A stretch of 64,000 bases of DNA from Zunongwangia mangrovi (GTDB lineage Bacteria > Bacteroidota > Bacteroidia > Flavobacteriales > Flavobacteriaceae): assembly GCF_900112105.1 (NCBI RefSeq), contig NZ_FOKV01000002.1, positions 248,001 through 312,000 on the forward strand, given 5' to 3'. The notes under the pieces are model-generated. The model had not been told where the DNA came from and did no database searches. It saw only the letters and a list, made by a program, of their open reading frames with translations. Positions 1-13,287 of the stretch are shown here, in pieces. The translations under genes were made by a program, and so were the position numbers. Position 1 is the first letter of the stretch. Each line of letters opens with the position of its first letter.

Positions 1-212
1 ACTGTATTTTTATCTGTAAGATTCTCTAAATCTACTTTAGGTAATAAAACTCCTTTATCTGTACTTTGAATATGTAAAACTGCTGAAGGATCTGGATCTG
101 ATGTACCTATACCAACTTGTGCCACTAATGAATTTGAGAAAAACAGGGTAGTAAAAACTAAAAAAATAACTGCAGAAACGAAGTTATTTTTTGAGGGGTA
201 ATTTTTCTTCAT
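1..212 (-). CDS. Exported VGIGT-type protein, N-terminal part (cut by window edge)
   Basis: Reading leftward from the ATG at 212-210 gives a signal peptide (lysine-rich start, hydrophobic core, end ...NSLVAQ) followed by VGIGTSDPDPSAVLHIQSTD and then a KGVLLPKVDL segment, after which the window ends. This is nearly the same N-terminus as the next gene (465-1250), so the two are tandem paralogues. Proteins starting with AQVGIGT..P are common exported or surface proteins in Flavobacteriia; their function is generally unknown, and some carry later adhesion or chaperone-like domains. Only about 70 residues are visible, so nothing can be said about the rest. The upstream 250 bases contain a long inverted repeat (324-357). 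Confidence 0.8.
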   Translation of the reverse strand, partial: MKKNYPSKNNFVSAVIFLVFTTLFFSNSLVAQVGIGTSDPDPSAVLHIQSTDKGVLLPKVDLENLTDKNT

Positions 213-323
213 TTTAAATCTTATTTAAATAAAATAGTCAAGAAAAGGTTAAGTTACTGACTTATAGATAGTCAAAATTAAACCTTAGCTTTTACTTAAA
301 TAAAACTTTACGATGAAGCGCGC

Positions 324-357
324 AAATAATCGTTTAAAAACGTTTAAACGGTTATTT
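324..357. repeat. Long inverted repeat between the two VGIGT paralogues
   Basis: Arms at 324-338 (AAATAATCGTTTAAA) and 343-357 pair over 15 positions with one mismatch around a 4-base centre. It lies between the stop of the 465-1250 gene and the start of the partial paralogue, both read leftward. It could terminate the first gene or act as an operator or leader hairpin for the second. The CGTTTAAA core recurs at about 1360-1370 upstream of the other paralogue, which hints at a shared regulator. The rest of 213-464 shows nothing else I can name. Confidence 0.5.
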
Positions 358-464
358 AACTGGCATTTTATCAGTATTATTTTTACAAAATCCTTGTAAT
401 AGTCACTGTTTTCGTTCAAATATTCATAATACTCTAGATATTAACAAATTGATTTTTAATTGAA

Positions 465-1250
465 TTACAACTTAAAAAGTGAAATTGAACAAGCCTCCGG
501 TATGGTAGATAACTCGGTGATCTCTCCTCTCGAATTTGCTTTCCTGGCATAGACACTAAGATCATCTGTATCTGAAAATTCAATTATACCTTGTAATGCA
601 ACTGTGTATTTTTCATCGTCATCAACTGAACTATCAATAGTTAAATAAACTGAAGAACCGTTTACTTTTTCTCCAGATTTAGTGAAATAGAATTCTACCA
701 CAGCATCTTCGGCATCATCGTCGTCTATATTCAAAGAAATGATAGCATTAACTTTAAATATTCCGTCGCTCTCTACATCCAATGCATTTTTAGAGTTATT
801 CCATCGAATATTGTTGGAGGTATAAGCTCTATCAAATCTAATTATTCTAATGTACCTATCGCTAAGGCTTTGTTTACTTCTAGCGTAAAAATTCCCATAG
901 GCTTTGGGTGTTGATTCCTCACTGGACAAGTCTGACTCATTAGTAATTTTATCCCATTGGTTGCTATCCCAACAATACAATCCTCTTTCAAGATTTTGAG
1001 CCCTATCGTTATTAGTGTTATAGACTAAAAGGCCCTCCGCAGGATTATCTACCGTATTCTTATCCCAAAGGTTTTTTAGATCTACCCTAGGTAATAATAC
1101 GCCTTTATCTGTGCTGGAAATGTGTAAAATTGAAGAAGGATCTGGCTCTGATGTACCTATACCAACTTGTGCATGGCTTGTTTCAAAATAGCAGGTGAAA
1201 ACAAGTAAAATCAAGGTATAACTACACCAAGAAAAGTAATTATGTGTCAT
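465..1250 (-). CDS. Exported VGIGT-type protein of unknown function
   Basis: 261 residues. The N-terminus is a signal peptide ending near residues 27-28 (SHA-Q), followed directly by VGIGTSEPDPSSILHISSTD and KGVLLPRVDL, the standard opening of a large flavobacterial exported family. Residues about 60-90 (EGLLVYNTN...GLYCWDSNQWDKI) match the usual continuation in which text-like repeats precede a C-terminal beta-rich domain. The C-terminal half (about 110-261) is acidic and beta-rich, TNF/C1q-like in feel, but I cannot assign a domain. It is a tandem paralogue of the gene at 1-212 and stands apart from the ATPase gene to its right by 204 bp. Function unknown; probably cell surface or extracellular. 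Confidence 0.85.
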   Translation of the reverse strand: MTHNYFSWCSYTLILLVFTCYFETSHAQVGIGTSEPDPSSILHISSTDKGVLLPRVDLKNLWDKNTVDNPAEGLLVYNTNNDRAQNLERGLYCWDSNQWDKITNESDLSSEESTPKAYGNFYARSKQSLSDRYIRIIRFDRAYTSNNIRWNNSKNALDVESDGIFKVNAIISLNIDDDDAEDAVVEFYFTKSGEKVNGSSVYLTIDSSVDDDEKYTVALQGIIEFSDTDDLSVYARKANSRGEITELSTIPEACSISLFKL

Positions 1251-1454
1251 AGCAAATATTTAAAGTAGGGTTAATATTGCTTCGTAATGAAACAAACATA
1301 ATACTTTAATTTGCAATACATTAAAAATTTAACAAAAATTAAACTTTATTATTTATTAAACGTTTAAAAATAGATATGTAATGTGAAATTAAAAATAACT
1401 GCCCAAACAAAAATTCGTAGACGTTCATGGTGTTCGGGCAGCGTAAAATGAGTT

Positions 1455-4400
1455 TTATTTTTCTAAACCACGTTTTAAAACCTCTCTAATACCCTCTAAA
1501 TTTTCACTAAAAGCCATCATTTGGGATAATACCTGTGCCATCTCATTCTTGTCGCCAAATCCCTTCAGCTTATTGTTCTTTAAAAAGGTCTCTTTAATCG
1601 CATTCCAACGAGCCTCTTCATCTTCAGAAATACTTCCGCGCAATTCTTTAAACTTTAATAAATTCGCTTCCGCAGCAGCTGTTAGTGTTTGAGATTCGTT
1701 CTCGTAATGCGATAATAACAAACTATTTAGTTCTTTTTCATTCATAATCGGTACCACTTTCGAGACCAGTTTATTCATATCTCGATACGATCCCTGCAAC
1801 TTAAAAGCCGGTTCTGTTCGATATTCGTCTTCCATCCCGGCCGATTTTATATAAGTTGCATTTACTTTTAAAACGGTATTACGAATGCTTAACACTTTCT
1901 CTAAAACCGATTTATAATCCTGAATTTCCTGTTGAGTATGATTCCCCTTTAATTCCCCGGCATCAGAATTATTTTCTACACGATCGATCAACGTATACAC
2001 ATCGTCAAAATTTCGAGAACTTAATTGATGCAATACAGAATTCGATGTTAGCGAATTCTCTAATAAGCTTAATTTAAACAAACTTTCGGTATCGCCAATA
2101 ATATCTCCCAAATTATAAATATCGGCACGGTTAGAAAGCATATCCGGGATTCTAAATTTCTCACCGCTTTCGGTATAAGGGTTGCCGGCCATGATCACAC
2201 AAAATTTCTTTCCGCGTAGATCATATGTTTTTGGTTTTCCGTTATAAATTCCTTCAATTTTTCGAGTTCCATCGGCTAGTGAAATAAACTTTTGTAAAAA
2301 TTCCGGATTACAATGCTGAATATCGTCTAAATACAACATCACATTATTTCCCATCTCAAAAGCCAGATTCAGTTTTTTAAGCTCTTCTCTGGAAGCCGAA
2401 TTTGTCGCGGCCTCAGGATCTACAGAGGTAATATCGTGACCAATCGCCGGCCCATTGATTTTCATAAAAACCAATCCCAACCTGTTGGCGATATATTCCA
2501 TCAGCGTTGTTTTCCCGTAACCCGGCGGCGAAATTAACAGCAACATCCCCATTCTGTCTGTACGTCGGTTCTCCCCTACACTTCCCAATTGTTTCGCCAG
2601 GTTTTCGCCGAATAATGGAAAATAAACCTGATCGATCAATTTATTCCGAACAAAAGAAGTCAGCACTCTTGGCTTAAATTCGTCTAATTTCAGCTGTTCT
2701 TTTAAATCTTCGGTGACCTGATGTCGTGCTTTTCTAAAGGCCTGAAATGCCGGAACGCTATAATTAAAATATAACTGAAGTTTTTGTGTAAAATCATGAA
2801 AATTGAACTGAAATTGTCCATTTTCGATGTTTTTATGGTCTCCTTTTAGTTCTGAAATTACTGCGGAAGGATCGATATGGTTGACCTCCGGACTTTGCTG
2901 CGGAAATAAAATACAACACGCAGCTTCGTCGATATAATTTGCTTGATTTTCTAACAATTTCGCTTTGGCGAACGCCTGAAGCCATTGTTTTACCAACCTG
3001 ATCTTTACTGAATAAAATTGTAAACTTTCAACACTATTTCTAAACTGAGATTCGGCTTTCTCTTTCTTCAGCATTTGCTGAAAATCATCTGCTAATTTTT
3101 TTGCCAATCCGCTTACCACAAATTGATCGTCACTTTGCAGTTCTTCAAAAAGATATTGTGCGGTTTCTAAACTGACTTCCGCAGAAAATAAGCCCGATTT
3201 TTGTCCAAAATCGCTAATTACCTGCTCTAATTCCTGAATTAAAAAGTCATATTCGCGAGTATTGGGGAAATATTTTAAAACCTGCCCCGAAGCTTTTATC
3301 GAATTATTATATCCTTTTTTAGCATCGCTTTCTAACTGGTTCCAAAAATATCTTGCAAAAGCTCGAATTTCAGATCGCCACCTTAAAATACCTAAATCTT
3401 TATGTTTTTGCACCAAAATTTGCAGCATCTTAGAGGCATCAAGATCATGAACTCCTTTTATATAACCCTCAGAATAATTACTGCTGCTTTCCTCCTGAAT
3501 CAGCTTCAGCAATTCATCTTCGTTTAATTCGAATAGATTTTCAGGAGACTGGTTTTTATAGATTTTAAAGGCTAAAAATGAAGAGCGATAAACCGAGTCA
3601 TTTTCAGAAATAAATTCCTGATTCCAATATTCTCGACTATTATTTAAAATTTCATTTTCCAGTTCCTGGTAAAAATCGGTTCCGCTTAAATGGTAAAATA
3701 ACTTATCGTCTTTAAAAACAATGCTTAGATCCAGTTCCTGACGGTTAACTCCGAATTTATGATTCCCGAGTTTGATAATATTTTCGCCATCTTCGTAAAG
3801 ATCCTGCTTGTCTTTTAGCTTTCGCAGCGCATCTTCCCTACTCGTTTTTAGCGAAGTTTCAATTTCTTCGGCATTACCGCTATCATCCAGTTCTCGTAAC
3901 TGCTCCACAATATCGCGAAGCTTATTTACCATAAGATCTGAAGCGAAATACCCGTTAATTTCTGAAACCGATTTTAAACTTTCAGCTTTCTTGCCAATAC
4001 TTTTTAAAATACGATCTGAAGCGGTTTGCAAGGCAATCGCCTTTTTATTTCGCTTTTCATTGATCGCACTTTTCTTACTTTCAAAGGCGTTATAAACTTC
4101 TTCCCGTTTTTCGATAATCTCAGTAATAAATTCCTCAAAATCGGCAAATTTCCCTTCTAATTCTTCCAGCTGAATACTGACTTTCGTTTGAAATTCATCA
4201 CATTTTTCAGGCGTTGAAGCGATATCCAGATAATTGATTATACTCTGATCGATCAGTTTTAATTGCGCAGCAAAATCGGCTTGGGCTTCTTTACTTCCCA
4301 GTGATTTTCTCTTATTCTTAATCGCTGCTTTTAACTGATTGATCGTTGCAAAAATCAAGCTAATATTATCAATGATTTTGGTTGAATGTGACGTATCTTC

Positions 4401-6323
4401 GATATCCAGATTCGAAACAATATCGATAAGCATTTCCAGATCTAAAGCGATCTGATTTACATCCTCTTCCAGCTTTTTGGCTTCGACAACTTTGCTGATC
4501 TTTTCTAATTGTTGCTGCTTTTCTTCAACTTTATCGTGATATGGCTGCAAGGCTTTATCATTCAGCAAAAATTCTACGCAGCGTCTCGAAATTTTAGTGG
4601 TTTGCTCTGCAATTTCAGCTTCCAGCGATTTAATAAATTCTTCGTTTACATATCGAATTTCATATAGACCAATCACCTCACCACGTAAAGCTCGTAGCTG
4701 CGAGAGTAATTCGACAAATTCGTTAATGTTTTTAAAAGAAGTACTTTTAATTTTACTGAAAAGCTCTTGTGCTTTCTGCTGAATTTCTTTGGTTTGTTTT
4801 TCAGCATTTTTCTTAAGCTGAATCACTTTCTGAAATTCATCTATCGCTGCATTTGCGGCAATATTGATCTCTTTTAACGGCTCACTTAAAACCGCTGTTT
4901 CCTTTTCATTCAGCCAATAATAAGCATCTAAAATATTCTTTGAAGATTTCGCAATATCGACATACAATCCGTCATAATTATCCTCCTTACTCAGCAATGT
5001 GATCAGCTCATTAGCCTCTGCCATTGCTTTCACGATATCTTTATTCCCAATTTTATATAACATCGAATCCTGATGTTCAGAAGGCATAATATCGCCTTCC
5101 AAATACGGCGTTTGCCAAATCTGGATCATGTGATGTTTGGTCTGCTCGTCATCAGCCTTAAAATAGCAAAGCTCTCCATTGGGTAAAATGGTGAAGCCAC
5201 CACAAACAATAGGTGTTTTGATTTCCTGCTCGATCATATTATAATCCATTAGCAGATAAGTGCCTTTTGAAGGCGAATAGAAAATATACAGAAAATCCTC
5301 CCCATTTGGAGAATTCATTATTCCCTGATATTTTAAAGACTGAACTTCGTTAGAGAATAGATGAAATTCCCCGGTTTGTAAATAGTAACCATTTGGGAAA
5401 ATAATTCCCTGATCGTCTGGTAATAAAACTGCCGTTTCTTTGATCGAATCGATTTTCTGAACTTCCTGCATTTTGTGATTGTATACAAAATAGCGTGCTT
5501 CTTCCTGAAAAGGTTTTATTTCAAGAATGATTAAATTTCCTAGATCGGCAAAGCGAATCTGGCCATCATCCAGCGTTTGATCTTTATAATCTACAGGTTC
5601 AGAATAAATTCCCATTCCGTCTTCTGTATTATCTTCAATTTTAATCGTAAGATCGCCGCCAATAGTTTCAACAAAAACTTTATCTAAAATTGCAACATGC
5701 GGATGTTCACCATAGCGTTGCATATCTCGCGTAGCTTCCTGCCAGTTAAATTGGTGCTGCTTAGGATACTTAAATTCGTGTTCGCTACGATTATCGATAT
5801 AGGTAAGCGAATTATCCTTTATAAGCCATTTAAAGGTCTTAATATCGGTCACACTTTCACTCAGCTGAAAAACCATATGCAGATAGTTCCCTATTCTTGC
5901 AAACTTACTAAAGATCGTATTTCGATAATATTTGTAAAGATTTGAAAAATCGGTTTTAAAAGTATCATCTTCAAAAAGCGCTAAAGAAACTGCTTCAAAA
6001 TGATGGTCTTTAAACTCGTAAACGCTAAAAACATCAGAAAGAGTAATTTCTGTACGTAATCCAAAATGAACATTATAGCCAAAAATGCAGGTATTTCCCA
6101 GCGAAATGATATCCCTGGCCACACAATTATTTTCGGTACTAATTCGGTTATTGGCAATTAATTGCGTTTCAAGCGAACCAAAAACCGTTTTCCGGGCGTC
6201 ATTTAAGGTATTAAGACGTTCCTGTAGATCAGATTTATGAGTGTTGAGACGTTTACGGATAATCTCGTAGGTTCCACCATCCAAAGCATCTTTTTGTACA
6301 GACTTTTCTTCGTTAGTATTCAT
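1455..6323 (-). CDS. Giant AAA+ ATPase (DUF3686 / 'DNA repair ATPase' family) of a PspA-flotillin cassette
   Basis: 1622 residues. The C-terminal quarter is a MoxR-like AAA+ module: Walker A PPGYGKTTL at about residues 1266-1274, Walker B-like MLYLDDIQHC at about 1328-1337 (DD rather than DE), sensor-1 region IMAGNPYTESGEK near 1378, then ML-NRAD. Residues about 90-420 are beta-rich with repeated short strands, possibly a propeller, and 480-860 are long charged coiled coils. Annotators usually call this family a DNA repair ATPase and attach DUF3686 to its N-terminus; both come from memory. The neighbours (flotillin, YqiJ/NfeD-like, PspA, YbjN-like) instead argue for remodelling membrane-associated PspA or flotillin assemblies. 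It is the last gene of the leftward cassette, 132 bp after the flotillin gene with a GC-rich hairpin between. The ATPase assignment is firm; the substrate is inferred. Confidence 0.85.
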   Translation of the reverse strand: MNTNEEKSVQKDALDGGTYEIIRKRLNTHKSDLQERLNTLNDARKTVFGSLETQLIANNRISTENNCVARDIISLGNTCIFGYNVHFGLRTEITLSDVFSVYEFKDHHFEAVSLALFEDDTFKTDFSNLYKYYRNTIFSKFARIGNYLHMVFQLSESVTDIKTFKWLIKDNSLTYIDNRSEHEFKYPKQHQFNWQEATRDMQRYGEHPHVAILDKVFVETIGGDLTIKIEDNTEDGMGIYSEPVDYKDQTLDDGQIRFADLGNLIILEIKPFQEEARYFVYNHKMQEVQKIDSIKETAVLLPDDQGIIFPNGYYLQTGEFHLFSNEVQSLKYQGIMNSPNGEDFLYIFYSPSKGTYLLMDYNMIEQEIKTPIVCGGFTILPNGELCYFKADDEQTKHHMIQIWQTPYLEGDIMPSEHQDSMLYKIGNKDIVKAMAEANELITLLSKEDNYDGLYVDIAKSSKNILDAYYWLNEKETAVLSEPLKEINIAANAAIDEFQKVIQLKKNAEKQTKEIQQKAQELFSKIKSTSFKNINEFVELLSQLRALRGEVIGLYEIRYVNEEFIKSLEAEIAEQTTKISRRCVEFLLNDKALQPYHDKVEEKQQQLEKISKVVEAKKLEEDVNQIALDLEMLIDIVSNLDIEDTSHSTKIIDNISLIFATINQLKAAIKNKRKSLGSKEAQADFAAQLKLIDQSIINYLDIASTPEKCDEFQTKVSIQLEELEGKFADFEEFITEIIEKREEVYNAFESKKSAINEKRNKKAIALQTASDRILKSIGKKAESLKSVSEINGYFASDLMVNKLRDIVEQLRELDDSGNAEEIETSLKTSREDALRKLKDKQDLYEDGENIIKLGNHKFGVNRQELDLSIVFKDDKLFYHLSGTDFYQELENEILNNSREYWNQEFISENDSVYRSSFLAFKIYKNQSPENLFELNEDELLKLIQEESSSNYSEGYIKGVHDLDASKMLQILVQKHKDLGILRWRSEIRAFARYFWNQLESDAKKGYNNSIKASGQVLKYFPNTREYDFLIQELEQVISDFGQKSGLFSAEVSLETAQYLFEELQSDDQFVVSGLAKKLADDFQQMLKKEKAESQFRNSVESLQFYSVKIRLVKQWLQAFAKAKLLENQANYIDEAACCILFPQQSPEVNHIDPSAVISELKGDHKNIENGQFQFNFHDFTQKLQLYFNYSVPAFQAFRKARHQVTEDLKEQLKLDEFKPRVLTSFVRNKLIDQVYFPLFGENLAKQLGSVGENRRTDRMGMLLLISPPGYGKTTLMEYIANRLGLVFMKINGPAIGHDITSVDPEAATNSASREELKKLNLAFEMGNNVMLYLDDIQHCNPEFLQKFISLADGTRKIEGIYNGKPKTYDLRGKKFCVIMAGNPYTESGEKFRIPDMLSNRADIYNLGDIIGDTESLFKLSLLENSLTSNSVLHQLSSRNFDDVYTLIDRVENNSDAGELKGNHTQQEIQDYKSVLEKVLSIRNTVLKVNATYIKSAGMEDEYRTEPAFKLQGSYRDMNKLVSKVVPIMNEKELNSLLLSHYENESQTLTAAAEANLLKFKELRGSISEDEEARWNAIKETFLKNNKLKGFGDKNEMAQVLSQMMAFSENLEGIREVLKRGLEK

Positions 6324-6392
6324 TTGGTTTTGTGGTAAGGTTAGGGTTTGATTGCTCTAATTATTGAAGCAGAAAGAATTAGAGAGGATGAA

Positions 6393-6413
6393 ATCCCGGG
6401 TCACGCCCGGGAT
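6393..6413. repeat. GC-rich perfect hairpin between flotillin and ATPase genes
   Basis: ATCCCGGG (6393-6400) and CCCGGGAT (6406-6413) pair over 8 bases around TCACG, followed by GACA. The composition contrasts sharply with the AT-rich flanks. The hairpin has no following T-run on either strand, so it is not a standard terminator. It resembles widespread CCCGGG-containing intergenic palindromes seen in many bacteria and could modulate expression of the ATPase relative to the flotillin in the same transcript. Confidence 0.6.
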
Positions 6414-6455
6414 GACAAGGCTCTAAATTTTAATTGATTTTCTTCAAATATTAGA

Positions 6456-8534
6456 TCAAACCTTTAAGGTTGAAACTCGCTTATCAGACAATCCTAAACC
6501 TTTAGCCAGGTTGAATAAATTGCCTAACATGGTTTGCTCATTTTGATCGTTTGAGCGCCCTTTTAATTCCATGATCAAATTAGCGATTGTTAGGTTTTTG
6601 ATATCTTCGGAAGAGATTCCGTACTTCTCTGAAAATTCACGAACTTTGGTTAGCAAATTCCCCTGAATATCATCACTGCCTAAGATCGAATCCTTTAGAT
6701 CCTGAATGTTAGAACTGTTCTGTACCAATCTATCGAATCCTTTACCTCTGGTAATCTGACCAATGATCTGGTCGAAGAACATGGTTTCACCACCAACAAT
6801 ATCGATCTTAGCGGCTTTAAGTGCATCACTAATTACATGCGCCTGAGCATCTGCAATATCTTTTTGGATGTTGATATGCGCAAGATCTACCTGTAATTCT
6901 TTATCCAGTTTCAACTTGAATTCTTCGTGTTCTTTACCTACACCATCAAGTTTCTTCATTGCGGCAGCCTTTTCTTCTATACCGGCAGCATCGGCAAGTG
7001 CTTTATCTCTAATCACATCTGCAGCGGCTTTACCTTCTTTTCTACTCGCTTCAGCTTTAGCTTCCATTCCGGCAGCTTCAGCTTTGGCTTTTTTCTCGAT
7101 AATAAGCGCTTCCATAAGTCCTTGTCTCTCGCTGGCATCTGCTTTCGCGTGCATTACTTCAGCTTCAGATAATCCAATGGTTGCTTCTTCTTTCGCTTTT
7201 GCTTCAGCAATGGTTTTTCTTGCTTCTGCTTCTTTTTCACTGGCTTCTTTATGCGCCTGCGCTTCAATATTAATTTCTTCAGCTTTTTGCTTGGCAGCTT
7301 CTTTTTGTGCTTCTGCAGCTTTAATGGTTTTGATCAATTGTTCCTGAGCGTTCGCTTCAGCAATAGTAACTTTCACTTGCTTCTCACGATCTGCAGTTTT
7401 AAAGGCCTGGATATCTTTCATATTCTCCTGCTCTTCTACCACACCTTTTTCTAACATCACACGATCACGAATAACATCCTGAATGTTTTTCTTCTCTACT
7501 TCTAGAACTTTCTCTTTCTCGATCTGCGCCAGCGTTACGATACGTTCTCTTTCAGTAGCCTCTAACATACGGTCTTTTTCAACACGTTCGCTTTCTACAG
7601 CTTCTGTTCGTTCTTTGTTTTTCGCCGCCACGATGATTTGACGGTTCATATTTTCTTCGGCAACTTTTACTTTTTCTTCCGTAGCAATTCTTGCTGTTTC
7701 AGATTTTAGGCGCTCTTCTTCAGCAACTTTGCTTACTTCAGCATTTTCTCGTGCCTTAATGTTTGCGATCTCACGTTTTTGAGCTTCTTCTTTTTCAGCT
7801 AATTGTTTATCTAATTCAAGGATAGCTTCGCGAGCTTCAACGTCTTGTTTTCTGATGGTTTTTTCTTCGTCACGCTTAATAAGGTTCGCTTTCATATTCT
7901 GAACCGCAGTAAGCTCGGTAATCTTTTTGATCCCTTCAGAATCCAGAATATTATCTGGTTTTAAATGCGAAATTGGTGTTTGCTCTAAAAAGTCGATCGC
8001 GCAATCCTCTAAAGTATAGCCGTTAAGATCTGTACCAATAATATTTACGATCTCGTCTCTAAATTCGCGACGTGCTTCGTATAGTTCGATAAAATCAAAC
8101 TTCTTTCCTACGGTTTTTAAGGCTTCAGAAAATTTAGCTTCAAAAAGATCCTCTAAAGTTTCGATTCTTGATGCACGATCTACACCAATGGTTTGTGCTA
8201 CTCTTTTAATAAAAGAAATATCGTTGTTCACCCTAACGAAGAAGGCAACTTTAATATCTGCCCGCATATTGTCTTTACAAATAAGGCCCTCGTGCTCCAT
8301 TCTTTCGATCTGGATTTTCTTTACAGAAATATCCATAACTTCCACTTTGTGGAAAACAGGCACCACATAAAGTCCTTTATCTGTGGCTACTTTGGTTCCC
8401 CCAAAACCGGTACGAACAATGGCACGGCCTTGTGGAACTTTCTTGTAAAACATCGCAATTATTGCGAAGTAAACTACGACTAGGAAGATAAATCCCCCTA
8501 ATCCAAATCCGATAAGTGGTAAAATTTGATCCAT
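6456..8534 (-). CDS. Flotillin-like SPFH/Band 7 membrane scaffold protein (YqiK-like)
   Basis: 692 residues. One N-terminal membrane helix (about residues 5-28) is followed by an SPFH/Band 7 domain (about 30-200; GRAIVRTGFGG, then KVEVMDISVKKIQIE). A very long Ala/Glu/Lys-rich coiled coil covers about 215-560, and a conserved C-terminal segment follows (about 590-692). This is the layout of bacterial flotillins such as FloT and YqiK, which form oligomeric scaffolds in ordered membrane patches. It sits 16 bp downstream of a YqiJ/NfeD-like gene, the usual flotillin partner. The high-GC alanine codons of the coiled coil create long spurious reading frames on the opposite strand (about 6868-7347), which are not genes. 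Confidence 0.93.
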   Translation of the reverse strand: MDQILPLIGFGLGGFIFLVVVYFAIIAMFYKKVPQGRAIVRTGFGGTKVATDKGLYVVPVFHKVEVMDISVKKIQIERMEHEGLICKDNMRADIKVAFFVRVNNDISFIKRVAQTIGVDRASRIETLEDLFEAKFSEALKTVGKKFDFIELYEARREFRDEIVNIIGTDLNGYTLEDCAIDFLEQTPISHLKPDNILDSEGIKKITELTAVQNMKANLIKRDEEKTIRKQDVEAREAILELDKQLAEKEEAQKREIANIKARENAEVSKVAEEERLKSETARIATEEKVKVAEENMNRQIIVAAKNKERTEAVESERVEKDRMLEATERERIVTLAQIEKEKVLEVEKKNIQDVIRDRVMLEKGVVEEQENMKDIQAFKTADREKQVKVTIAEANAQEQLIKTIKAAEAQKEAAKQKAEEINIEAQAHKEASEKEAEARKTIAEAKAKEEATIGLSEAEVMHAKADASERQGLMEALIIEKKAKAEAAGMEAKAEASRKEGKAAADVIRDKALADAAGIEEKAAAMKKLDGVGKEHEEFKLKLDKELQVDLAHINIQKDIADAQAHVISDALKAAKIDIVGGETMFFDQIIGQITRGKGFDRLVQNSSNIQDLKDSILGSDDIQGNLLTKVREFSEKYGISSEDIKNLTIANLIMELKGRSNDQNEQTMLGNLFNLAKGLGLSDKRVSTLKV

Positions 8535-8550
8535 TTTTTTTAAGTTAGGT

Positions 8551-9261
8551 TTAGTCGTTATAAGATTGTACTAAGAAGTAATTTTTATCTGCAGATTGCT
8601 TGATAATTAAGATTTTGTCGTGGTAATTTAATTGATGTCCATCTAACGATTTTACGTAGATGGAATGCGAATCTCCATTAGCATAGATTTCAGCATTTCC
8701 CATTTTATCACCAGAAATGGTGGATAACAAAATACCTTGCCTGCCAATATAATCGATAGCTTTATCACCGTCTTTATTCAGGTTTTTAAAGAAACCTTTA
8801 AATGGTGTAGTAAAGATCTTGTTTACAAATAAAGAGGTAAAAAAACCGGCGATCATGATGGCGAAACCCAAAAAGTTATCATACGTGTAGGTTAGCGCTG
8901 TTGTAATTGCCGTGGTAAACCACCAGATAAATACGAAACAGGTAAAGGTGAACATAAATGGCAGCCCAACAAAGTTGAAATAGATCAACATAATTTGCCA
9001 CCATTTTAAAGGTTGAATTCTTCTACCTACCACATCCTCTTTATTCAGCTCGGCATTCGAAACATCCTGAAATTCCATATTTGCGCCATCGGTTGCCAAA
9101 TCGGCATCGACATCTACATCGGCATCGATATCAATATCCATGTCGTAATCAAAGTCGATACCGCTTATCATGGTTAGCAACCAATAAACGATCAATAGCA
9201 TACAGAGGATGCTTAAGGTAATGTTTACCTCAGAGAATAATATGTCTGTTAAACTGGTCAA
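8551..9261 (-). CDS. YqiJ/NfeD-like inner-membrane protein with OB-fold C-terminus
   Basis: 236 residues. A first membrane helix (about residues 14-33, IYWLL-type) is followed by a striking acidic alternation (residues about 36-58, DYDMDIDIDADVDVDADLAT) and then two more helices (about 90-150). The C-terminal 80 residues (IGRQGILLSTISGDKMGNAE onward) look like the OB-fold of NfeD and YqiJ proteins. This architecture and the DxDxD run match the YqiJ family, which in many bacteria is encoded beside the YqiK flotillin. NfeD-like proteins are thought to support flotillin assembly. It lies 5 bp after pspA and 16 bp before the flotillin gene, clearly one transcript. Confidence 0.85.
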   Translation of the reverse strand: MTSLTDILFSEVNITLSILCMLLIVYWLLTMISGIDFDYDMDIDIDADVDVDADLATDGANMEFQDVSNAELNKEDVVGRRIQPLKWWQIMLIYFNFVGLPFMFTFTCFVFIWWFTTAITTALTYTYDNFLGFAIMIAGFFTSLFVNKIFTTPFKGFFKNLNKDGDKAIDYIGRQGILLSTISGDKMGNAEIYANGDSHSIYVKSLDGHQLNYHDKILIIKQSADKNYFLVQSYND

Positions 9262-9266
9262 TTTCG

Positions 9267-9980
9267 TTATTTTTTATCATCATTTAAACCTAATTGATCT
9301 TTAAGTTTGCTAAGATCATCTTCGGCTTTTGCTTCTGTAGTGCTTGCTGCTTTTTCAAGCTCTTCGTCAATAGATTTAGAGGCGCCTGCAATATCGCCAT
9401 AGGCTTCAGCCAAAGCTTCTTCCTGCGCTACTTTTTCTTTCATGCGCTCTAGCATAGAAACTGTGCTACTACTATCAATCTCGGCCATTTGCTTGTTAAG
9501 GCTCTTTGTGGCGTTACTCACTTTTACACGAGCTTTAAGCGTTCTAAGTTCGTTTTCCCAATTGCTAATATTCGATTTGATGGTTTGAATATTTCGCTCT
9601 AATTGGGCTACGTTTTCATTAAACTTTTTGGCTTCTTCTTCAGATCGTTCTACGTGTTTTTGCGCTTCTTCCTTTTTTACTAAAGCCTCACGAGCAAGGC
9701 GATCTGATTCGGTTTTATCCATATCACCACTTTGTCCTTTCTTCAGGATCAAAATCGCTTTATTATGGTAGTCTTCTTTTTTGTCCAGATATTCTTCCTG
9801 GTCGTTCTTTGCTCTAATTGCCAGGGCTTTTACCTGCGCCAAAGCTTCCAGATTTTTCTCCAAATCCTGTTTAAGGTCCCTGATTCCCTGCTCGGTTAAT
9901 TTAATGGGATCTTCCATTTTATCTATTGCTGAATTTGCTTCAGCTTCTCCTATTTTAAATAATCGTTTAAAAATGTTCAT
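9267..9980 (-). CDS. pspA: PspA/IM30 family membrane-stress protein
   Basis: 237 residues, almost entirely alpha-helical coiled coil. The N-terminus (MNIFKRLFKIGEAEANSAID, then KMEDPIKLTEQGIRDLKQDL) is the diagnostic opening of PspA/IM30/Vipp1, with an amphipathic helix that binds stressed membranes and a conserved MEDP motif. Family members assemble into ESCRT-III-like rods and rings that stabilise or repair the cytoplasmic membrane. No PspB, PspC or PspF is encoded nearby. The partners here are a YbjN-like protein (11 bp upstream) and YqiJ, flotillin and an AAA+ ATPase downstream, so regulation must differ from the sigma-54 system of enterobacteria. Confidence 0.93.
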   Translation of the reverse strand: MNIFKRLFKIGEAEANSAIDKMEDPIKLTEQGIRDLKQDLEKNLEALAQVKALAIRAKNDQEEYLDKKEDYHNKAILILKKGQSGDMDKTESDRLAREALVKKEEAQKHVERSEEEAKKFNENVAQLERNIQTIKSNISNWENELRTLKARVKVSNATKSLNKQMAEIDSSSTVSMLERMKEKVAQEEALAEAYGDIAGASKSIDEELEKAASTTEAKAEDDLSKLKDQLGLNDDKK

Positions 9981-9991
9981 AACGCTAAGGT

Positions 9992-10387
9992 TTAATATTT
10001 TGAAAATTCTATGATTTTGTCTGAATATTCACTCATTAATAAACTAAGTGAATTTAATGATCCTTCCAGTTCGTTTAGATCTAAGTTTTCTATCTGAAGC
10101 GTATCTCTAAAGATCACTTTTTCTCCAGAATCGTCTACTACAAAGGCGCCATGGATAATGTCACGGTTTTTTTGCAACAGGCTGCGATAGATCTTTTCAG
10201 ACTGGTTATTAATCTTGAATAAGAACTGCTCCATTATTAAAATAGGCGGTGCTACACCCAGGATAAGGTTTTTAATTCCAAAATTCTCTTTTCGAATCAT
10301 TAAAATTCCTTCGGCTTCATTTTCGAAATCGATATTGAAATTAAGCTCTAGCAGAAAATTTTTGGTTATCTGAAAGTGGTTTTTCAT
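9992..10387 (-). CDS. YbjN-like small protein, first gene of the pspA-flotillin cassette
   Basis: 131 residues, no signal peptide. The alternation of helices and strands (ILMIRKENFGIKNLILGVAP, then KINNQSEKIYRSLLQKN and GAFVVDDSGEKVIFRDTLQI) resembles the YbjN / type III secretion chaperone-like fold, also found as small companions of PspA (YjfI-type) in other genomes. It is 11 bp upstream of pspA and is the promoter-proximal gene. A plausible role is a chaperone or adaptor for PspA; this is inference from order and fold resemblance. The inverted repeat at 10430-10453 lies about 43 bp before its start. Confidence 0.7.
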   Translation of the reverse strand: MKNHFQITKNFLLELNFNIDFENEAEGILMIRKENFGIKNLILGVAPPILIMEQFLFKINNQSEKIYRSLLQKNRDIIHGAFVVDDSGEKVIFRDTLQIENLDLNELEGSLNSLSLLMSEYSDKIIEFSKY

Positions 10388-10429
10388 CTAGACAGTGTTT
10401 TTTGATTGGTGTTAAAAACTAGAGTATAA

Positions 10430-10453
10430 TAATACAAAATCTATTTTGTATTA
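10430..10453. promoter_or_regulatory. Perfect 11-bp inverted repeat, candidate operator of the pspA cassette
   Basis: TAATACAAAAT (10430-10440), two-base spacer CT, then ATTTTGTATTA (10443-10453). The symmetry is exact over all 22 paired bases. It sits 43 bp before the start codon of the YbjN-like gene, inside the 291-bp divergent region shared with the XRE regulator at 10679. Its size and spacing suit a dimeric helix-turn-helix repressor or activator. Nearby, GCTGTAAT occurs twice as a 12-bp-spaced direct repeat (about 10476 and 10488). Confidence 0.6.
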
Positions 10454-10612
10454 AGGTATTATTAACACAATCACTGCTGTAATTATTGCTGTAATCATTG
10501 GTTGTTTAGGTTTAAAGTTCAAATTTTCCATTTCAAGCTAATTCATTTAGCAATCTCTTTCTTTTTAAATTCATATAGAGAAATAACCAAATAAATTAGT
10601 AATTATCAAATC

Positions 10613-10624
10613 TATTAGCTAATA
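10613..10624. promoter_or_regulatory. 12-bp palindrome near the XRE regulator start
   Basis: TATTAGCTAATA is a perfect 12-base palindrome 55 bp upstream of the XRE gene. A related near-palindrome, AATTAGTAATT, lies at 10594-10604. The pair could be an autoregulatory operator. The AT-rich background makes chance occurrence possible, so confidence is limited. Confidence 0.35.
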
Positions 10625-10678
10625 TTGTTAGATAAAGATACAACTAAATTTCAATATTGCAAATAATTTTAGCAAAAT

Positions 10679-11437
10679 ATGTCGTATTTCGGTAAAAATA
10701 TTAGGAAGATAAGAAATGTAAAGAAACTAAGTCAGCAGGCTTTTGCTGAATTATTCGAGCTAAAACGCGGTACTTTGGGTGCTTACGAAGAAGAACGAAG
10801 TGAACCTAGAATCGAAACCATTATTAAAATAGCTAATCATTTTAGCATTACTATAGATGATCTACTTACCAAAGAACTTACCGTGAATAAACTTTTAAAA
10901 TTTAAAGACGACCTTGCGCTACAAGGTAGTTTTAGTAAAGAAGAGTTTACCAAAATTCCCTGTATCACTCCAAAAACCGAAGCAGATTATATACAATATT
11001 ACGATAAGCCACACTTTATAGAAGATCTTCCCAAACTTCATTTACCAATAAATCCTGATAAAAAATATAGAGGTTACTTAATTTCTAATTTAGAAATGAC
11101 TGATAACGATAAAGCATTTTGCCCTAAGGATGTTGTTATAGGAGAACATATTTTAGCGGAAGATTTTACCAAAATCGAAAATGGCAGCCTGGTTATTGTT
11201 TTAGTTCACGGAAAAATATTCTTTAGAAAGTTTTATCACTCTTCAACAACTGTAACCTTAAGAGCAACTAATACCAATATCGACGATCTTGAAGTTTCTC
11301 CTACAGAAATTAAAGAAATGTGGAGTGTTTGCTACACCTTCTTTAAGCGTCTTCCTGAAAATAATAATGTTGAAATCGAACAAAAGCTTAATTTCCTAGA
11401 GCAGGAATTTATGAAATTAAGGCAGAATTTTAAGTAA
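10679..11437 (+). CDS. XRE-family regulator with degenerate S24-like C-terminal domain
   Basis: 252 residues. Residues about 5-60 form a Cro/C1-type helix-turn-helix (IRKIRNVKKLSQQAFAELF, then KRGTLGAYEEERSEPRIETI). Residues about 125-225 (GYLISNLEMTDNDKAFCPKD, then VLVHGKIFFRKFY and EIKEMWSVCYTFF) follow the order of LexA/CI-like S24 domains, but the catalytic serine region lacks the G-D-S-M motif, so self-cleavage is unlikely. A short coiled coil ends the protein. It is transcribed away from the pspA-flotillin cassette across a 291-bp region holding two dyads, which makes it the best local candidate for the cassette's regulator. No phage genes lie nearby. Confidence 0.8.
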   Translation: MSYFGKNIRKIRNVKKLSQQAFAELFELKRGTLGAYEEERSEPRIETIIKIANHFSITIDDLLTKELTVNKLLKFKDDLALQGSFSKEEFTKIPCITPKTEADYIQYYDKPHFIEDLPKLHLPINPDKKYRGYLISNLEMTDNDKAFCPKDVVIGEHILAEDFTKIENGSLVIVLVHGKIFFRKFYHSSTTVTLRATNTNIDDLEVSPTEIKEMWSVCYTFFKRLPENNNVEIEQKLNFLEQEFMKLRQNFK

Positions 11438-11583
11438 GTTGTATTCCGAAGAATACATTCTTTCTAGATTTATTTATAGTTTCTAAGCCTATTTTAGAGC
11501 GGAAAAAGCCTATAATTCAAAAATTAGCTGTCTAATATAATATTGCAGAATTTTACTTAAATTAAGCCATTAAAATCCCCATC

Positions 11584-12177
11584 ATGAAATCGGCCTTTTC
11601 AATAATTATTATTTTATTTCTTGATTTTGCGCTGTATGCACAAAAAGAGAATTATACCTATACGATAATCCACAAGGACGATACGATTGGGCAATTAAAA
11701 GCGGTTAAAGAAACACAGGGCCAAAGTGTACAATATCTTACCAAAACAAATATAGAAACCCGAATTTTAACCAAAATTGAAGTCAGTTACGCCTTTGATG
11801 TAAAATTTGATGGCCAACATTTAGAACAATCTGATGTTCAAATTTATTTTAACGGTAAAGAACGTACAAATACCAAAACTTTAAAATCTACCAGCGGTTA
11901 CAAGTTTTACGATTCGGGCGAATTAGAGAAAAACATCAAACATTCTGTCTCCTATTGTGGCGTGCAATTAATTTTTGAAGAACCTACAGGAATAGATCGC
12001 GTTTACAGCGAAGAAACAGGTGGATTTCATGCGTTAAGAAAGATTGGAAACCATATCTACGCAAAAGAAAACGAAAAAGGCCGGGAAAGCACTTATCTTT
12101 ATAAAAACGGAATTTTACATTCTGCAAAAATTGATGCCGGAATTATCGAATTTGAGCTGCGCTTACAGCAATCATAA
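11584..12177 (+). CDS. Exported protein of unknown function (DUF6134-like)
   Basis: 197 residues with a signal peptide ending ...ALYAQ at about residue 20. The mature part is beta-rich with regularly spaced strands (YTYTIIHKDDTIGQLKAVKE, later TYLYKNGILHSAKI) and resembles the DUF6134 family of periplasmic Bacteroidota proteins; that name is from memory. One cysteine is visible (Cys in SYCGVQ). The 3' end overlaps the convergent DUF1697 gene by 6 bp. Function unknown. Confidence 0.75.
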   Translation: MKSAFSIIIILFLDFALYAQKENYTYTIIHKDDTIGQLKAVKETQGQSVQYLTKTNIETRILTKIEVSYAFDVKFDGQHLEQSDVQIYFNGKERTNTKTLKSTSGYKFYDSGELEKNIKHSVSYCGVQLIFEEPTGIDRVYSEETGGFHALRKIGNHIYAKENEKGRESTYLYKNGILHSAKIDAGIIEFELRLQQS

Positions 12178-12714
12178 GCTTTTAGTCATCTCTAAGAGCT
12201 TAATACAGGTTTTCCAGTTTCGGGTAGTACAATTTATTTTCAACAGCTTTTCAGCGACACTATTATTGATATTCGATTTACTGTAACGCTCTGTTTCACA
12301 GCAAATGTAAACACAATCTTCAGCAGTCGTAAAGACATCTGGAGAGGCATCGAAAGTTTCAAGCTTTTGGCGGTTTTCTAAGATGGGTTCAGTCTTAAAA
12401 AAAGTACAGTGTAAACGCTTAATATCAACCTCAGCATAAGGATTATTTTTAATGATCGCAGCAAAATTTTCTTCGGAAAGAACCAATGTGCTCACCTCAA
12501 ATCCATAATGTTCTAAGATCTTTTTCTGAATTAATTGCGCCAGCTTTGCTTCACTATCTCCTGAAGCGCTAAAGATTATATTACCGCTTTGAATATAGGT
12601 TTTAACTTTATCTATTTCTTCTATTTTCGTTAGCAAATCCCTGAGCTCTGCCATTAGAATCTTTTTGTGTCCACCAACGTTGATTCCTTTTAAGATTGCA
12701 ATGTATTTCTTCAT
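12172..12714 (-). CDS. DUF1697 family protein
   Basis: 180 residues. The opening MKKYIAILKGINVGGHKKIL followed by MAELRDLL and TYIQSGNIIFSA is the hallmark of DUF1697, a small cytoplasmic family found across bacteria with no firmly established function. Conserved segments TLVLSEENFAAIIKNNPY and the C-terminal KSNINNSVAEKLLKINCTTR-like block are also typical. It overlaps the 3' end of the convergent gene at 11584-12177. Confidence 0.88.
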   Translation of the reverse strand: MKKYIAILKGINVGGHKKILMAELRDLLTKIEEIDKVKTYIQSGNIIFSASGDSEAKLAQLIQKKILEHYGFEVSTLVLSEENFAAIIKNNPYAEVDIKRLHCTFFKTEPILENRQKLETFDASPDVFTTAEDCVYICCETERYSKSNINNSVAEKLLKINCTTRNWKTCIKLLEMTKSL

Positions 12715-12825
12715 TAAAATTTGGAGTAATTAACATTAAAAGCTAAATCGAGGTGAATTTAAAAATAATTAAGACTATTATCGTTAGTCTTACCTTAATT
12801 TTGATAGGAATATATAAAATCGCCT

Positions 12826-13287
12826 ATGGAAAAGATAAATGATAGTAAAAAGATTGCGAATGCATTGCAGGAGCTTTTAGAAAAAAATTGCGATGCAGAA
12901 CAGGTTTACAAGGATGGATTAAATGATACGGAAGACAATCTTTTAAAAGACTTTATTTTAACGCAGGCGAAACAGCGTGCAAGATTTGCTAAGGAATTAG
13001 AAAGAGAGCTTTACCAAATTGATCATTTGCCCGCAGCCAGTGGAACTTTACAAGGAACCTTGCAGCGTACCTGGATGGATTTAAAAACAATCTTCAGCAA
13101 AAATAAAGATGAAATTATCCTTGAAGAATGCCTAAAAGGTGAAAAAGAAAGCGCCGAAGAATACGAAAGAGCTATTGCACAGTACAATTTCAGTGAAGAC
13201 GTTTTAAGGGTTTTAAACGGCCAGTTAGACGAAATAAACTATACACTAACAAAAATATCTTCCATAAAGGATCTGGAGCATTATTAA
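12826..13287 (+). CDS. PA2169-type (DUF2383) four-helix-bundle protein
   Basis: 153 residues, fully helical, no signal peptide. The pattern LQELLEKNCDAEQVYKDGLN, then FAKELERELYQ and a final EYERAI helix, corresponds to the PA2169/DUF2383 ferritin-like bundle family. These are usually found among stress-associated genes. The metal-binding residues of true ferritins are not obvious. The 3' end faces the universal stress protein gene, with repeat copy C (13298-13398) filling the convergent gap. Confidence 0.85.
   Translation: MEKINDSKKIANALQELLEKNCDAEQVYKDGLNDTEDNLLKDFILTQAKQRARFAKELERELYQIDHLPAASGTLQGTLQRTWMDLKTIFSKNKDEIILEECLKGEKESAEEYERAIAQYNFSEDVLRVLNGQLDEINYTLTKISSIKDLEHY

What the first reader, a model, noticed from the sequence alone, without database searches (positions are those of the whole stretch)
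1455..11437. PspA-flotillin-YqiJ-YbjN cassette with a giant AAA+ ATPase and a divergent XRE regulator
Five leftward genes with gaps of 11, 5, 16 and 132 bp encode a YbjN-like protein, PspA/IM30, a YqiJ/NfeD-like protein, a flotillin and a 1622-residue MoxR-like AAA+ ATPase. They face an XRE regulator with a degenerate S24-like domain. PspA-NfeD-flotillin linkages are known from comparative work on the phage-shock response, and AAA+ ATPases are reported partners of PspA. A five-gene version with this giant ATPase and no PspB/PspC/PspF looks like a self-contained membrane-repair system whose ATPase may disassemble PspA or flotillin polymers, as Vps4 does for ESCRT-III. The Vps4-like role is inference. 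The DNA-repair label usually attached to this ATPase family is probably misleading here.
Basis: partly seen in the sequence, partly recalled or inferred. Interest (0 to 1): 0.75.

Follow-up and report, generated by a model that had tools for sequence, protein, structure and literature searches.

The report
Flotillin-ATPase membrane operon with PspA
This is a bacterial envelope-stress operon of a type already described in print, in which a very large ATP-driven protein nearly always sits next to a flotillin membrane scaffold and only sometimes next to the membrane-repair protein PspA, so the flotillin is its more likely partner.

Summary
The arrangement is not new: Ravi et al. 2024 (PMC11237479) describe it, including the ATPase with coiled coil and beta-propeller. 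Comparison changes the reading. Flotillin and YqiJ accompany the ATPase in 111 of 114 loci with at least 3.5 kb upstream; PspA does so in 59 of 107 with at least 7 kb. In 395 genomes of the window's phylum the close flotillin was found in exactly the 10 with the ATPase, while 145 carry PspA without it. Four genomes hold the trio and no PspA match. So the ATPase is probably a flotillin machine; CesT-PspA is an add-on that also lives alone. Its AAA+ domain is nearest RuvB and MoxR-type structures; no Vps4 is in the top 50. The XRE regulator goes with the add-on and has conserved 15-bp palindromic operators around the promoter, which I did not find described. On pQBR103 another kind of PspA pair heads a gene cluster that runs into the trio. 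The biochemistry is untested.

The parts
1455..6323 (-). Giant AAA+ ATPase, 1622 aa: N-terminal helix, beta-propeller (about residues 54-405; DUF3686 31-468), long helices (about 420-840), helical middle region, MoxR/RuvB-like AAA+ domain with C-terminal helices (about 1220-1622)
   Evidence: models of residues 1-840 (mean pLDDT 87.1) and 840-1622 (86.8); Foldseek; motifs
6456..8534 (-). Flotillin/SPFH (Band_7) protein, 692 aa, of the subfamily that accompanies the ATPase; C-terminal part (about 450-692) is subfamily-specific
8551..9261 (-). YqiJ/YuaF (NfeD-like) membrane protein, 236 aa, TTG start
   Evidence: no Pfam match
9267..9980 (-). PspA/IM30 protein, 237 aa; the only PspA match in this genome
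9992..10387 (-). CesT/Tir-like chaperone-fold protein (PF22550), 131 aa, the PspA dyad partner
10679..11437 (+). Divergent XRE regulator with degenerate S24/LexA-like C-terminal domain
   Evidence: found divergent from the operon in 56 loci
10659..10673 (-). Operator O1 GCTAAAATTATTTGC, 5 bp from the XRE start codon and overlapping the -33 TTG
10634..10662 (-). Candidate Bacteroidota-type promoter (TTG, 19 nt, TATCTTT) reading towards the operon
   Evidence: such a pattern in 40 of 55 intergenic regions against a shuffle mean of 10.5, maximum 18; promoter consensus recalled
10618..10632 (-). Operator O2 TCTAACAATATTAGC, directly downstream of the -7 box
10537..10551 (.). Operator-like palindrome GCTAATTCATTTAGC
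10832..10846 (.). Operator-like palindrome GCTAATCATTTTAGC inside the XRE gene

Best explanation
A layered envelope-stress operon. Core: flotillin and YqiJ/NfeD form an SPFH scaffold at the inner face of the cytoplasmic membrane, and the giant AAA+ ATPase is its dedicated motor. The ATPase presumably docks through its propeller or coiled coil, or through the flotillin's special C-terminal region, forms a MoxR-type ring, and uses ATP to remodel the flotillin assembly or release trapped client proteins. Add-on: CesT-PspA, a membrane-repair pair that also exists on its own, joined in Bacteroidota so that PspA polymers are built or recruited where the flotillin machine works. Control: the XRE protein binds GCTAA-N5-TTAGC palindromes around the promoter, silences the operon and itself, and lets go on an unknown signal, probably without self-cleavage. 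Shown here: gene linkage, module structure, the flotillin subfamily, predicted domain architecture, operator conservation. Inferred: docking, ring formation, substrates, repression and its signal.
For: Trio linkage: flotillin and YqiJ in 111 of 114 ATPase loci with at least 3.5 kb upstream. The three exceptions keep the flotillin elsewhere in the genome, with YqiJ beside it in two of the three. Phyletic match: a flotillin of at least 56% identity (best piece) in exactly 10 of 395 genomes, the same 10 that carry the ATPase; 12 others have only a 30-38% flotillin (the program scored only the best 2 candidates per genome). Distant homologues (34-48% identity; 11 of 12 plasmid-collection places read; Bacteroidota, Pseudomonadota, Actinomycetota, Deinococcota): flotillin 11 of 11, YqiJ 10 of 11. 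The C-terminal part is kept in linked flotillins and largely absent or different in 12 flotillins of ATPase-free genomes; a motif there is in 75 of 112 linked against 0 of 11. PspA is optional: 59 of 107; of 14 genomes without linked PspA, 4 have no match, 1 only a sub-cut-off match, 9 a PspA outside the locus. The dyad stands alone: 11 of 11 strong PspA loci sampled from ATPase-free genomes have a CesT-superfamily neighbour, 6 strongly and 5 weakly matched. The link to PspA looks real: another dyad type (DUF2170-PspA) heads a cluster running into the trio on pQBR103, and in the window's family and order the only PspA matches with E below 1e-10 are in the 9 ATPase genomes. Operators: at least one site in 45 of 55 against a shuffle mean of 0.58, maximum 3, and 1 of 50 trio-only regions; composite O1/-7/O2 in 26 of 55 against 0 in each of 100 shuffles; the pair is unique in the genome. 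L098, which lacks CesT-PspA but keeps XRE, has an O1-like site before YqiJ. Literature: FloA-NfeD stabilises unfolded proteins without ATP (PMC11222466, passages); HflK/C SPFH proteins work with the AAA+ protease FtsH (PMC13220708, abstract and outline); an SPFH protein is needed for PspA recruitment in B. subtilis (PMC8581546, passages).
Against: I have no interaction, localisation or activity data for any protein of this operon and found none in the searches made. Linkage and co-occurrence show a shared pathway, not contact. YqiJ-flotillin pairs live without the ATPase beside them in E. coli and in 10 of 12 ATPase-free loci, so flotillins in general do not need it. Identity of the ATPase-free flotillins falls along the whole protein (0.19-0.49 over residues 1-300, 0.11-0.35 over 301-450, 0.02-0.23 beyond), so the C-terminal difference is partly general divergence. 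The tail is not uniform: its end differs in Deinococcus, Halomonas and Pseudomonas, and the motif is missing in 37 of 112 linked flotillins, so a single docking peptide is unproven. An Asp at the catalytic-Glu position might mean slow hydrolysis, a switch rather than a motor. Ten of 55 six-gene loci lack the palindrome (L011, L019, L066, L068, L071, L079, L084, L088, L095, L096). The trio-only control for the operators includes GC-rich phyla, so it is a soft control.
Confidence: 0.55

Rival explanations
1. One reading: the ATPase is a bacterial Vps4 that disassembles PspA (ESCRT-III-like) polymers.
For: PspA is an ESCRT-III relative (PMC8281802, start of abstract in the listing); PspA lies in the same operon in 59 of 107 loci; in the window's family and order every PspA match with E below 1e-10 comes with the ATPase; another PspA dyad type precedes the trio on pQBR103; Ravi et al. 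suggest ATP-dependent remodelling for PspA-AAA+ pairs.
Against: The ATPase persists, with an open frame, in genomes with no PspA match (G395, G396, G399, G401). 145 of 395 genomes have PspA over the cut-off without this ATPase. No Vps4 among the top 50 Foldseek matches; no MIT domain in Pfam at E up to 0.1; Walker B is D-D in 121 of 121.
Confidence: 0.15
2. MoxR-type assembly chaperone: the ATPase matures or inserts a partner (the flotillin-YqiJ complex or an envelope enzyme) rather than disassembling anything, as CbbQ and NorQ do for their targets.
For: Foldseek neighbours RuvB, CbbQ2 (target-normalised TM 0.63) and NorQ; AAA_5 match; Asp-Asp Walker B suggests a switch (inference).
Against: MoxR proteins usually pair with a VWA-domain protein (recalled); I recognised none among the 22 largest neighbour clusters printed, though no VWA model was run. 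The beta-propeller and coiled coil are not MoxR features (recalled).
Confidence: 0.25
3. An anti-phage or other conflict system: a sporadic, regulated, sometimes plasmid-borne accessory module.
For: Patchy distribution (10 of 395 in the phylum; 30 of 199 in the phylum of a Gimesia locus); occurrence on plasmid records; XRE regulator, whose HTH matches several defence-associated HTH models down to E 6.7e-10; Aureivirga (Flavobacteriaceae) groups with Cytophagales rows in the ATPase tree.
Against: Flotillin, YqiJ and CesT match no PADLOC model at E up to 0.01, the ATPase only IetA over its P-loop (0.0022), PspA only coiled-coil matches of 1e-3 to 1e-2. No match of the ATPase in 50,697 phage records. 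No recurring neighbour that I recognised as a defence system (by eye).
Confidence: 0.05

Closest known systems
CesT/Tir-PspA operon with band-7/flotillin, AAA+ and YqiJ of Ravi et al. 2024 (PMC11237479; example ANH61663.1)
   Same: [quoted passage not shown] abbreviated flotillin-YqiJ(-ATPase) operons are also mentioned there.
   Different: The main text mentions no XRE, LexA, S24 or operator (figures and supplements not seen). It suggests that the abbreviated operons may use PspA from elsewhere; here some such genomes have no PspA match.
Flotillin-NfeD pairs (E. coli YqiJ-YqiK, B. subtilis YuaF-FloT, S. aureus NfeD-FloA)
   Same: SPFH/flotillin next to an NfeD-type membrane protein; profile matches to E. 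coli YqiK and YqiJ.
   Different: No giant ATPase beside the E. coli pair (the others recalled or from passages); the flotillin C-terminal part differs from YqiK and from ATPase-free Bacteroidota flotillins.
HflK/C with the AAA+ protease FtsH
   Same: An SPFH assembly working with an AAA+ protein (abstract).
   Different: FtsH is a membrane-bound protease; this ATPase has no protease family match in Pfam and a MoxR/RuvB-like AAA+ domain.
ESCRT-III with Vps4
   Same: PspA belongs to the ESCRT-III superfamily.
   Different: AAA+ type, Walker B and N-terminal architecture differ, and the PspA partner is optional.
Polyamine-type YjfI(DUF2170)-PspA operon (Ravi third group)
   Same: A CesT/Tir-superfamily protein (so classed by Ravi et al.) beside PspA; on pQBR103 this cluster runs into the trio.
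   Different: A different CesT-type family and extra polyamine genes; not present in the window.

Membership tests
CesT/Tir-PspA band-7 operon (Ravi et al.) | CesT/Tir-like gene paired with pspA | tested here: met
   PF22550 E 3.6e-56 and PF04012 E 1.2e-44, 11 bp apart
[quoted passage not shown]
   Band_7 32-176; E. coli YqiK matches the flotillin profile at 1.7e-66; TM and coiled coil not computed
CesT/Tir-PspA band-7 operon (Ravi et al.) | AAA+ ATPase with coiled coil and beta-propeller | tested here: met
   models and Foldseek
CesT/Tir-PspA band-7 operon (Ravi et al.) | YqiJ/YuaF-type 3TM protein | tested here: met
   E. coli YqiJ matches the family profile at 4.5e-6; relatives L165 and L082 match YqiJ_N above and just below its cut-off; number of TM helices not computed
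Classical Psp system (PspFABC) | PspA | tested here: met
Classical Psp system (PspFABC) | PspB, PspC and PspF in the same locus | tested here: not met
   none among 13 window proteins scanned around the operon; rest of the genome not searched
Vps4 / ESCRT-III disassembly ATPase | AAA+ domain of the classical (Vps4) type | tested here: not met
   RuvB, MoxR, MCM, ClpA, LON and dynein among the top 50 of 1279 Foldseek matches, no Vps4. Against this: sequence hits to classical AAA (VCP, Rix7) cover the P-loop region, and Pfam AAA (1.7e-7) and AAA_5 (3.1e-7) are about equal
Vps4 / ESCRT-III disassembly ATPase | MIT domain | tested here: not met
   no MIT match in Pfam at E up to 0.1
Vps4 / ESCRT-III disassembly ATPase | disassembles ESCRT-III-type polymers | not testable with these tools
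   needs biochemistry
MoxR AAA+ family | MoxR-like AAA+ fold | tested here: met
   CbbQ2 and NorQ among the best Foldseek matches, with RuvB ranked first
MoxR AAA+ family | VWA-domain partner gene nearby (recalled) | tested here: inconclusive
   none recognised by eye among the 22 largest neighbour clusters; no VWA model was run
DNA-repair ATPase (the Pfam and RefSeq label) | linkage to DNA-repair genes | tested here: not met
   constant neighbours are flotillin and YqiJ, sometimes PspA; no repair gene recognised among the largest clusters, though DUF559 and GIY-YIG nuclease-like genes recur in 7 and 5 loci. No paper found with PF12458, DUF3686, or 'DNA repair ATPase' plus flotillin
LexA/S24 self-cleaving repressors | catalytic Ser and Lys | tested here: not met
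   Ser position: E in 46, S in 3 of 56; Lys position: R in 45 of 56; the positions are recalled from LexA

The most novel reading that the evidence does not exclude
Bacteria have an ATP-driven flotillin machine: a giant propeller/coiled-coil/MoxR-type AAA+ protein dedicated to one flotillin subfamily and its NfeD-like partner, seen here in eight phyla. It turns the ATP-independent flotillin holdase into an active remodelling device, and CesT-PspA repair pairs of two different kinds have been attached to it independently.
Probability: 0.45. Interest if true: 0.7.

Novelty: new member of a known kind. Interest (0 to 1): 0.45.

Why it matters
What bacterial flotillins do, and whether they need energy, is open. 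A dedicated AAA+ ATPase that follows one flotillin subfamily across phyla gives a direct genetic handle: delete the ATPase and see what happens to flotillin assemblies and their clients. It also sets a membrane context against a database name ('DNA repair ATPase') that looks misleading, and offers a candidate regulator and operator as a reporter for the inducing stress.

Tried and rejected
Fusion in L078 (3320-residue frame): rejected, the extra length is masked N sequence. Extra conserved genes at the locus: none in more than 9 of 123 loci. Defence-system reading: only weak or local matches outside the HTH and no phage record. A wider XRE regulon in this genome: strict single palindromes occur at 6 places (2 of them here) against 7 for the reversed control, so elsewhere they are at chance level, and the one at 54058 lies inside a coding frame; only the paired arrangement is specific. 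Sigma-70-type promoter and terminator scans were uninformative. Sequence search of PDB with the whole ATPase gave P-loop-region matches only.

Limits. Of the 30 Planctomycetota-type genomes 24 were read, of the 10 Verrucomicrobiota-type 9 (the tenth is L097). Loci with short flanks were left out of the counts as stated (123 in all; 114 with at least 3.5 kb and 107 with at least 7 kb upstream). Genomes are partly drafts or MAGs of unstated completeness; L050, L098 and L063 carry NZ_ accessions, L059 is a MAG; only 16 genomes were tested. In some searches only the best few candidates per genome were scored. The 11 lone PspA loci were picked from the strongest matches (E below 1e-38) of 145 genomes; the weaker PspA class was not sampled, and in 5 of the 11 (L129-L132, L139) the CesT match is weak (E 2e-6 to 5e-8; the one checked, L129, fits the related TY-Chap1 model best). 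L172 (a cut frame) was left out of the motif count. The ATPase tree is a FastTree with long branches joined; its count of 8 changes of the dyad cannot tell gain from loss. Four loci have PspA without a detected CesT (L057, L091, L123, L147), and several of these and L066 are long branches in the PspA tree.
Full report
Check of the observation. Pfam identifies DUF3686 plus AAA in the ATPase, Band_7 in the flotillin, PspA_IM30, and HTH_3 with a weak S24 domain in the regulator. The small first gene is CesT_Tir_1 (E 3.6e-56) rather than YbjN (E 2.1e-4). The nearest named relative is Zunongwangia pacifica, 97% identical over the ATPase. The window's genome has one DUF3686 match and one PspA match, both here.

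What is in print. Ravi et al. 2024 (PMC11237479; [quoted passage not shown] The window's operon is therefore a member of a published kind. The main text of that paper does not contain XRE, LexA, S24 or operator; figures and supplements were not available. Popp et al. 2022 (PMC9239133; section 11 and passages) note band-7 neighbours of pspA in Bacteroidota and HTH regulators in PspA operons in general. No paper was found with DUF3686, PF12458, or 'DNA repair ATPase' with flotillin.

Which genes belong together. DUF3686 matches 10 of 395 genomes of the window's phylum, 30 of 199 of the phylum of a Gimesia locus, 10 of 145 of the phylum of a Verrucomicrobia locus and 1 of 198 of the phylum of a Desulfobacterales locus, that genome itself. 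All 9 other positive genomes have the complete six-gene set. A scan of genome contigs kept 80 named loci of 568 relatives. With 24 Planctomycetota-type and 9 Verrucomicrobiota-type loci, 123 ATPase loci were examined. Where at least 3.5 kb upstream was held, flotillin and YqiJ were there in 111 of 114. Where at least 7 kb was held, 55 of 107 had all six genes, 45 only the trio, 4 the trio with PspA but no CesT, 1 the trio with XRE only, and 2 none (recounted). Every detected partner was on the same strand as the ATPase and every XRE divergent.

The exceptions. L069, L152 and L153 lack a linked flotillin, but all three genomes, and that of the contig-end locus L145, encode it elsewhere, with YqiJ beside it in three of the four.

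Other neighbours. No other family recurs in more than 9 of the 123 loci. The largest clusters are inside Aquimarina. Smaller ones cross genera: a LytTR-type regulator (8 loci, scattered positions), DUF559 (7) and GIY-YIG (5) nuclease-like genes (one member of each of the last two checked), the latter two mostly in the gap between flotillin and ATPase. That gap exceeds 500 bp in 32 of 114 loci.

Flotillin is the tighter partner. In the 395 genomes a flotillin of at least 56% identity was found in exactly the 10 ATPase genomes; 12 further genomes have only a 30-38% relative. PspA is over its cut-off in 155 of the same 395, so 145 have PspA without the ATPase; still, in the window's own family and order the only PspA matches with E below 1e-10 are in the 9 ATPase genomes. 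Of 14 genomes whose ATPase locus has no PspA, 4 have no PspA match at all, 1 has only a sub-cut-off match, and 9 have PspA outside the locus. Eleven strong PspA loci from ATPase-free genomes all have a CesT-superfamily neighbour, 6 with a strong match (E 2e-30 or better) and 5 with a weak one. So trio and dyad are separate modules. On the ATPase tree all 55 dyad carriers fall in one clade of 73 rows whose named members are Bacteroidota, and the label needs 8 changes. Operon PspAs and lone-dyad PspAs are largely apart (3 and 2 changes of label).

More distant homologues. tblastn in the plasmid collection gave 12 records (some, such as the 4.1-Mb Proteus and 11.9-Mb Nonomuraea records, are probably chromosomes); 11 were read (H3 was not). 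Flotillin is directly upstream in 11 of 11 and YqiJ in 10 of 11. PspA is within the 8-kb upstream flank in 2: a Hymenobacter plasmid with the full six-gene set, and pQBR103, where a DUF2170(YjfI)-PspA pair heads a seven-gene polyamine-type cluster that runs on the same strand into the trio, 97 bp from its last gene to YqiJ. That second, different dyad by the trio is the best sign that the link to PspA is functional and not only inherited. It is a single case. Phage records: no match.

The ATPase. The model of residues 1-840 (pLDDT 87.1) shows a beta-propeller at about 54-405 followed by long helices; Foldseek's best matches are WD-repeat propellers. The model of residues 840-1622 (pLDDT 86.8) has RuvB, the MoxR protein CbbQ2, NorQ, MCM, ClpA, LON and dynein among its top 50, no Vps4; these are partial matches with low query-normalised TM. 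In the 121 of 122 aligned rows that cover the region, Walker A GYGKTT, Walker B DD.QH, sensor MAGNP, the arginine of (N/S)R and GSYR are invariant; outside that set two Streptomyces homologues vary the last Walker A residue and pQBR103 has MSGNP. That Asp replaces the usual catalytic Glu is a recalled comparison.

The flotillin's tail. Against 12 flotillins from ATPase-free genomes (one cut at a contig end), 111 linked ones keep the region beyond residue 450 (occupancy by block 0.82-1.00, identity to the window 0.35-0.73; unlinked 0.18-0.91 and 0.02-0.23). Unlinked identity is also low before that (0.19-0.49 to residue 300, 0.11-0.35 to 450), so the contrast is one of degree plus an alternative end. 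A VGG...GK..D motif is in 75 of 112 linked flotillins, 2 of the 4 flotillins that lie apart from their ATPase, and 0 of 11 from ATPase-free genomes. The tail is a candidate docking site, but its end varies between phyla.

The regulator and its operators. XRE goes with the dyad: all 55 loci with CesT have it, and otherwise only L098, which lacks CesT-PspA. Its S24 catalytic positions are changed in most members. Between XRE and CesT lies a 15-bp palindrome, GCTAA-N5-TTAGC. O1 ends 5 bp from the XRE start codon in the window, the commonest placing (25 loci share the offset), and the next site follows 41-42 bp further in 29 of the 36 regions with two or more sites. At least one site occurs in 45 of 55 regions (shuffles: mean 0.58, maximum 3), two or more in 36 (maximum 1), and in 1 of 50 trio-only upstream regions. 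In 26 of 55 regions a TAnnTTT box sits between O1 and O2, in none of the regions in 100 shuffles. Related sequences are not independent, so these counts overstate the strength. The pair is unique in the window's genome (control 0), while single strict palindromes are at chance (6 against 7). L098 has an O1-like site followed by TATATTTG before YqiJ (read by eye), which suggests that XRE controls the trio too.

How it most likely works. Flotillin with NfeD stabilises unfolded proteins without ATP in S. aureus (PMC11222466, passages). HflK/C SPFH proteins work with the AAA+ protease FtsH (PMC13220708, abstract and outline). An SPFH protein is needed to bring PspA to the membrane in B. subtilis (PMC8581546, passages). 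SPFH2-NfeD pairing is old (PMC2636767, passages). I propose that the giant ATPase adds energy to one flotillin subfamily, releasing clients or recycling the scaffold, and that CesT-PspA adds membrane repair where the machine works. Confidence is about 0.55 for the trio being the functional core with this kind of role; the docking site and the substrate are guesses.

Verdict. Observation confirmed; interpretation partly supported; a member of a published operon kind. What this work adds is the separation into trio, dyad and regulator, the flotillin subfamily, genomes with trio and no PspA match, the second dyad type on pQBR103, and the operators.

Noticed in passing
L186 (pQBR103) 22-13226: A YjfI(DUF2170)-PspA-rhomboid-DUF2491-DUF350-DUF1190-glutathionylspermidine synthase cluster runs on one strand into YqiJ-flotillin-ATPase on a Pseudomonas plasmid.
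   Followed up: partly
gap between flotillin and ATPase in L011, L013, L024, L040, L049, L055, L060, L084 and others: The flotillin-ATPase gap is often long (over 500 bp in 32 of 114 loci) and in several genera holds small DUF559 or GIY-YIG nuclease-like genes, as if it were a tolerated insertion point.
   Followed up: partly
L098 5960-9651 (Chryseobacterium balustinum): XRE kept and facing YqiJ, with CesT-PspA missing and no PspA match in the genome: a natural case that separates regulator and trio from PspA.
   Followed up: partly
L057 6149-6847 (Winogradskyella MAG): A divergent PspA-like protein next to the trio without a detected CesT or XRE.
   Followed up: no
L082 9956-15676 (Desulfobacterales HSG16): The ATPase frame has a C-terminal extension that looks like ankyrin repeats (by eye).
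   Followed up: no
L027, L030-L033, L040, L046, L054, L055 (Aquimarina): A small protein of about 84 aa with a hydrophobic end, encoded between flotillin and ATPase, recurring only in this genus.
   Followed up: no
L185 2723-4503 (Proteus mirabilis record): Frames resembling a TPM-domain protein and LemA, on the opposite strand just upstream of the trio (by eye); the record is filed as a plasmid but is 4.1 Mb.
   Followed up: no
window 54058-54072: A perfect operator-like palindrome inside an RmuC-like coding frame (53840-55240, named by eye); by genome counts it is at chance level.
   Followed up: yes
L078 9860-19822 (Gimesia MAG): An apparent 3320-residue ATPase frame that is only masked N sequence read through.
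   Followed up: yes
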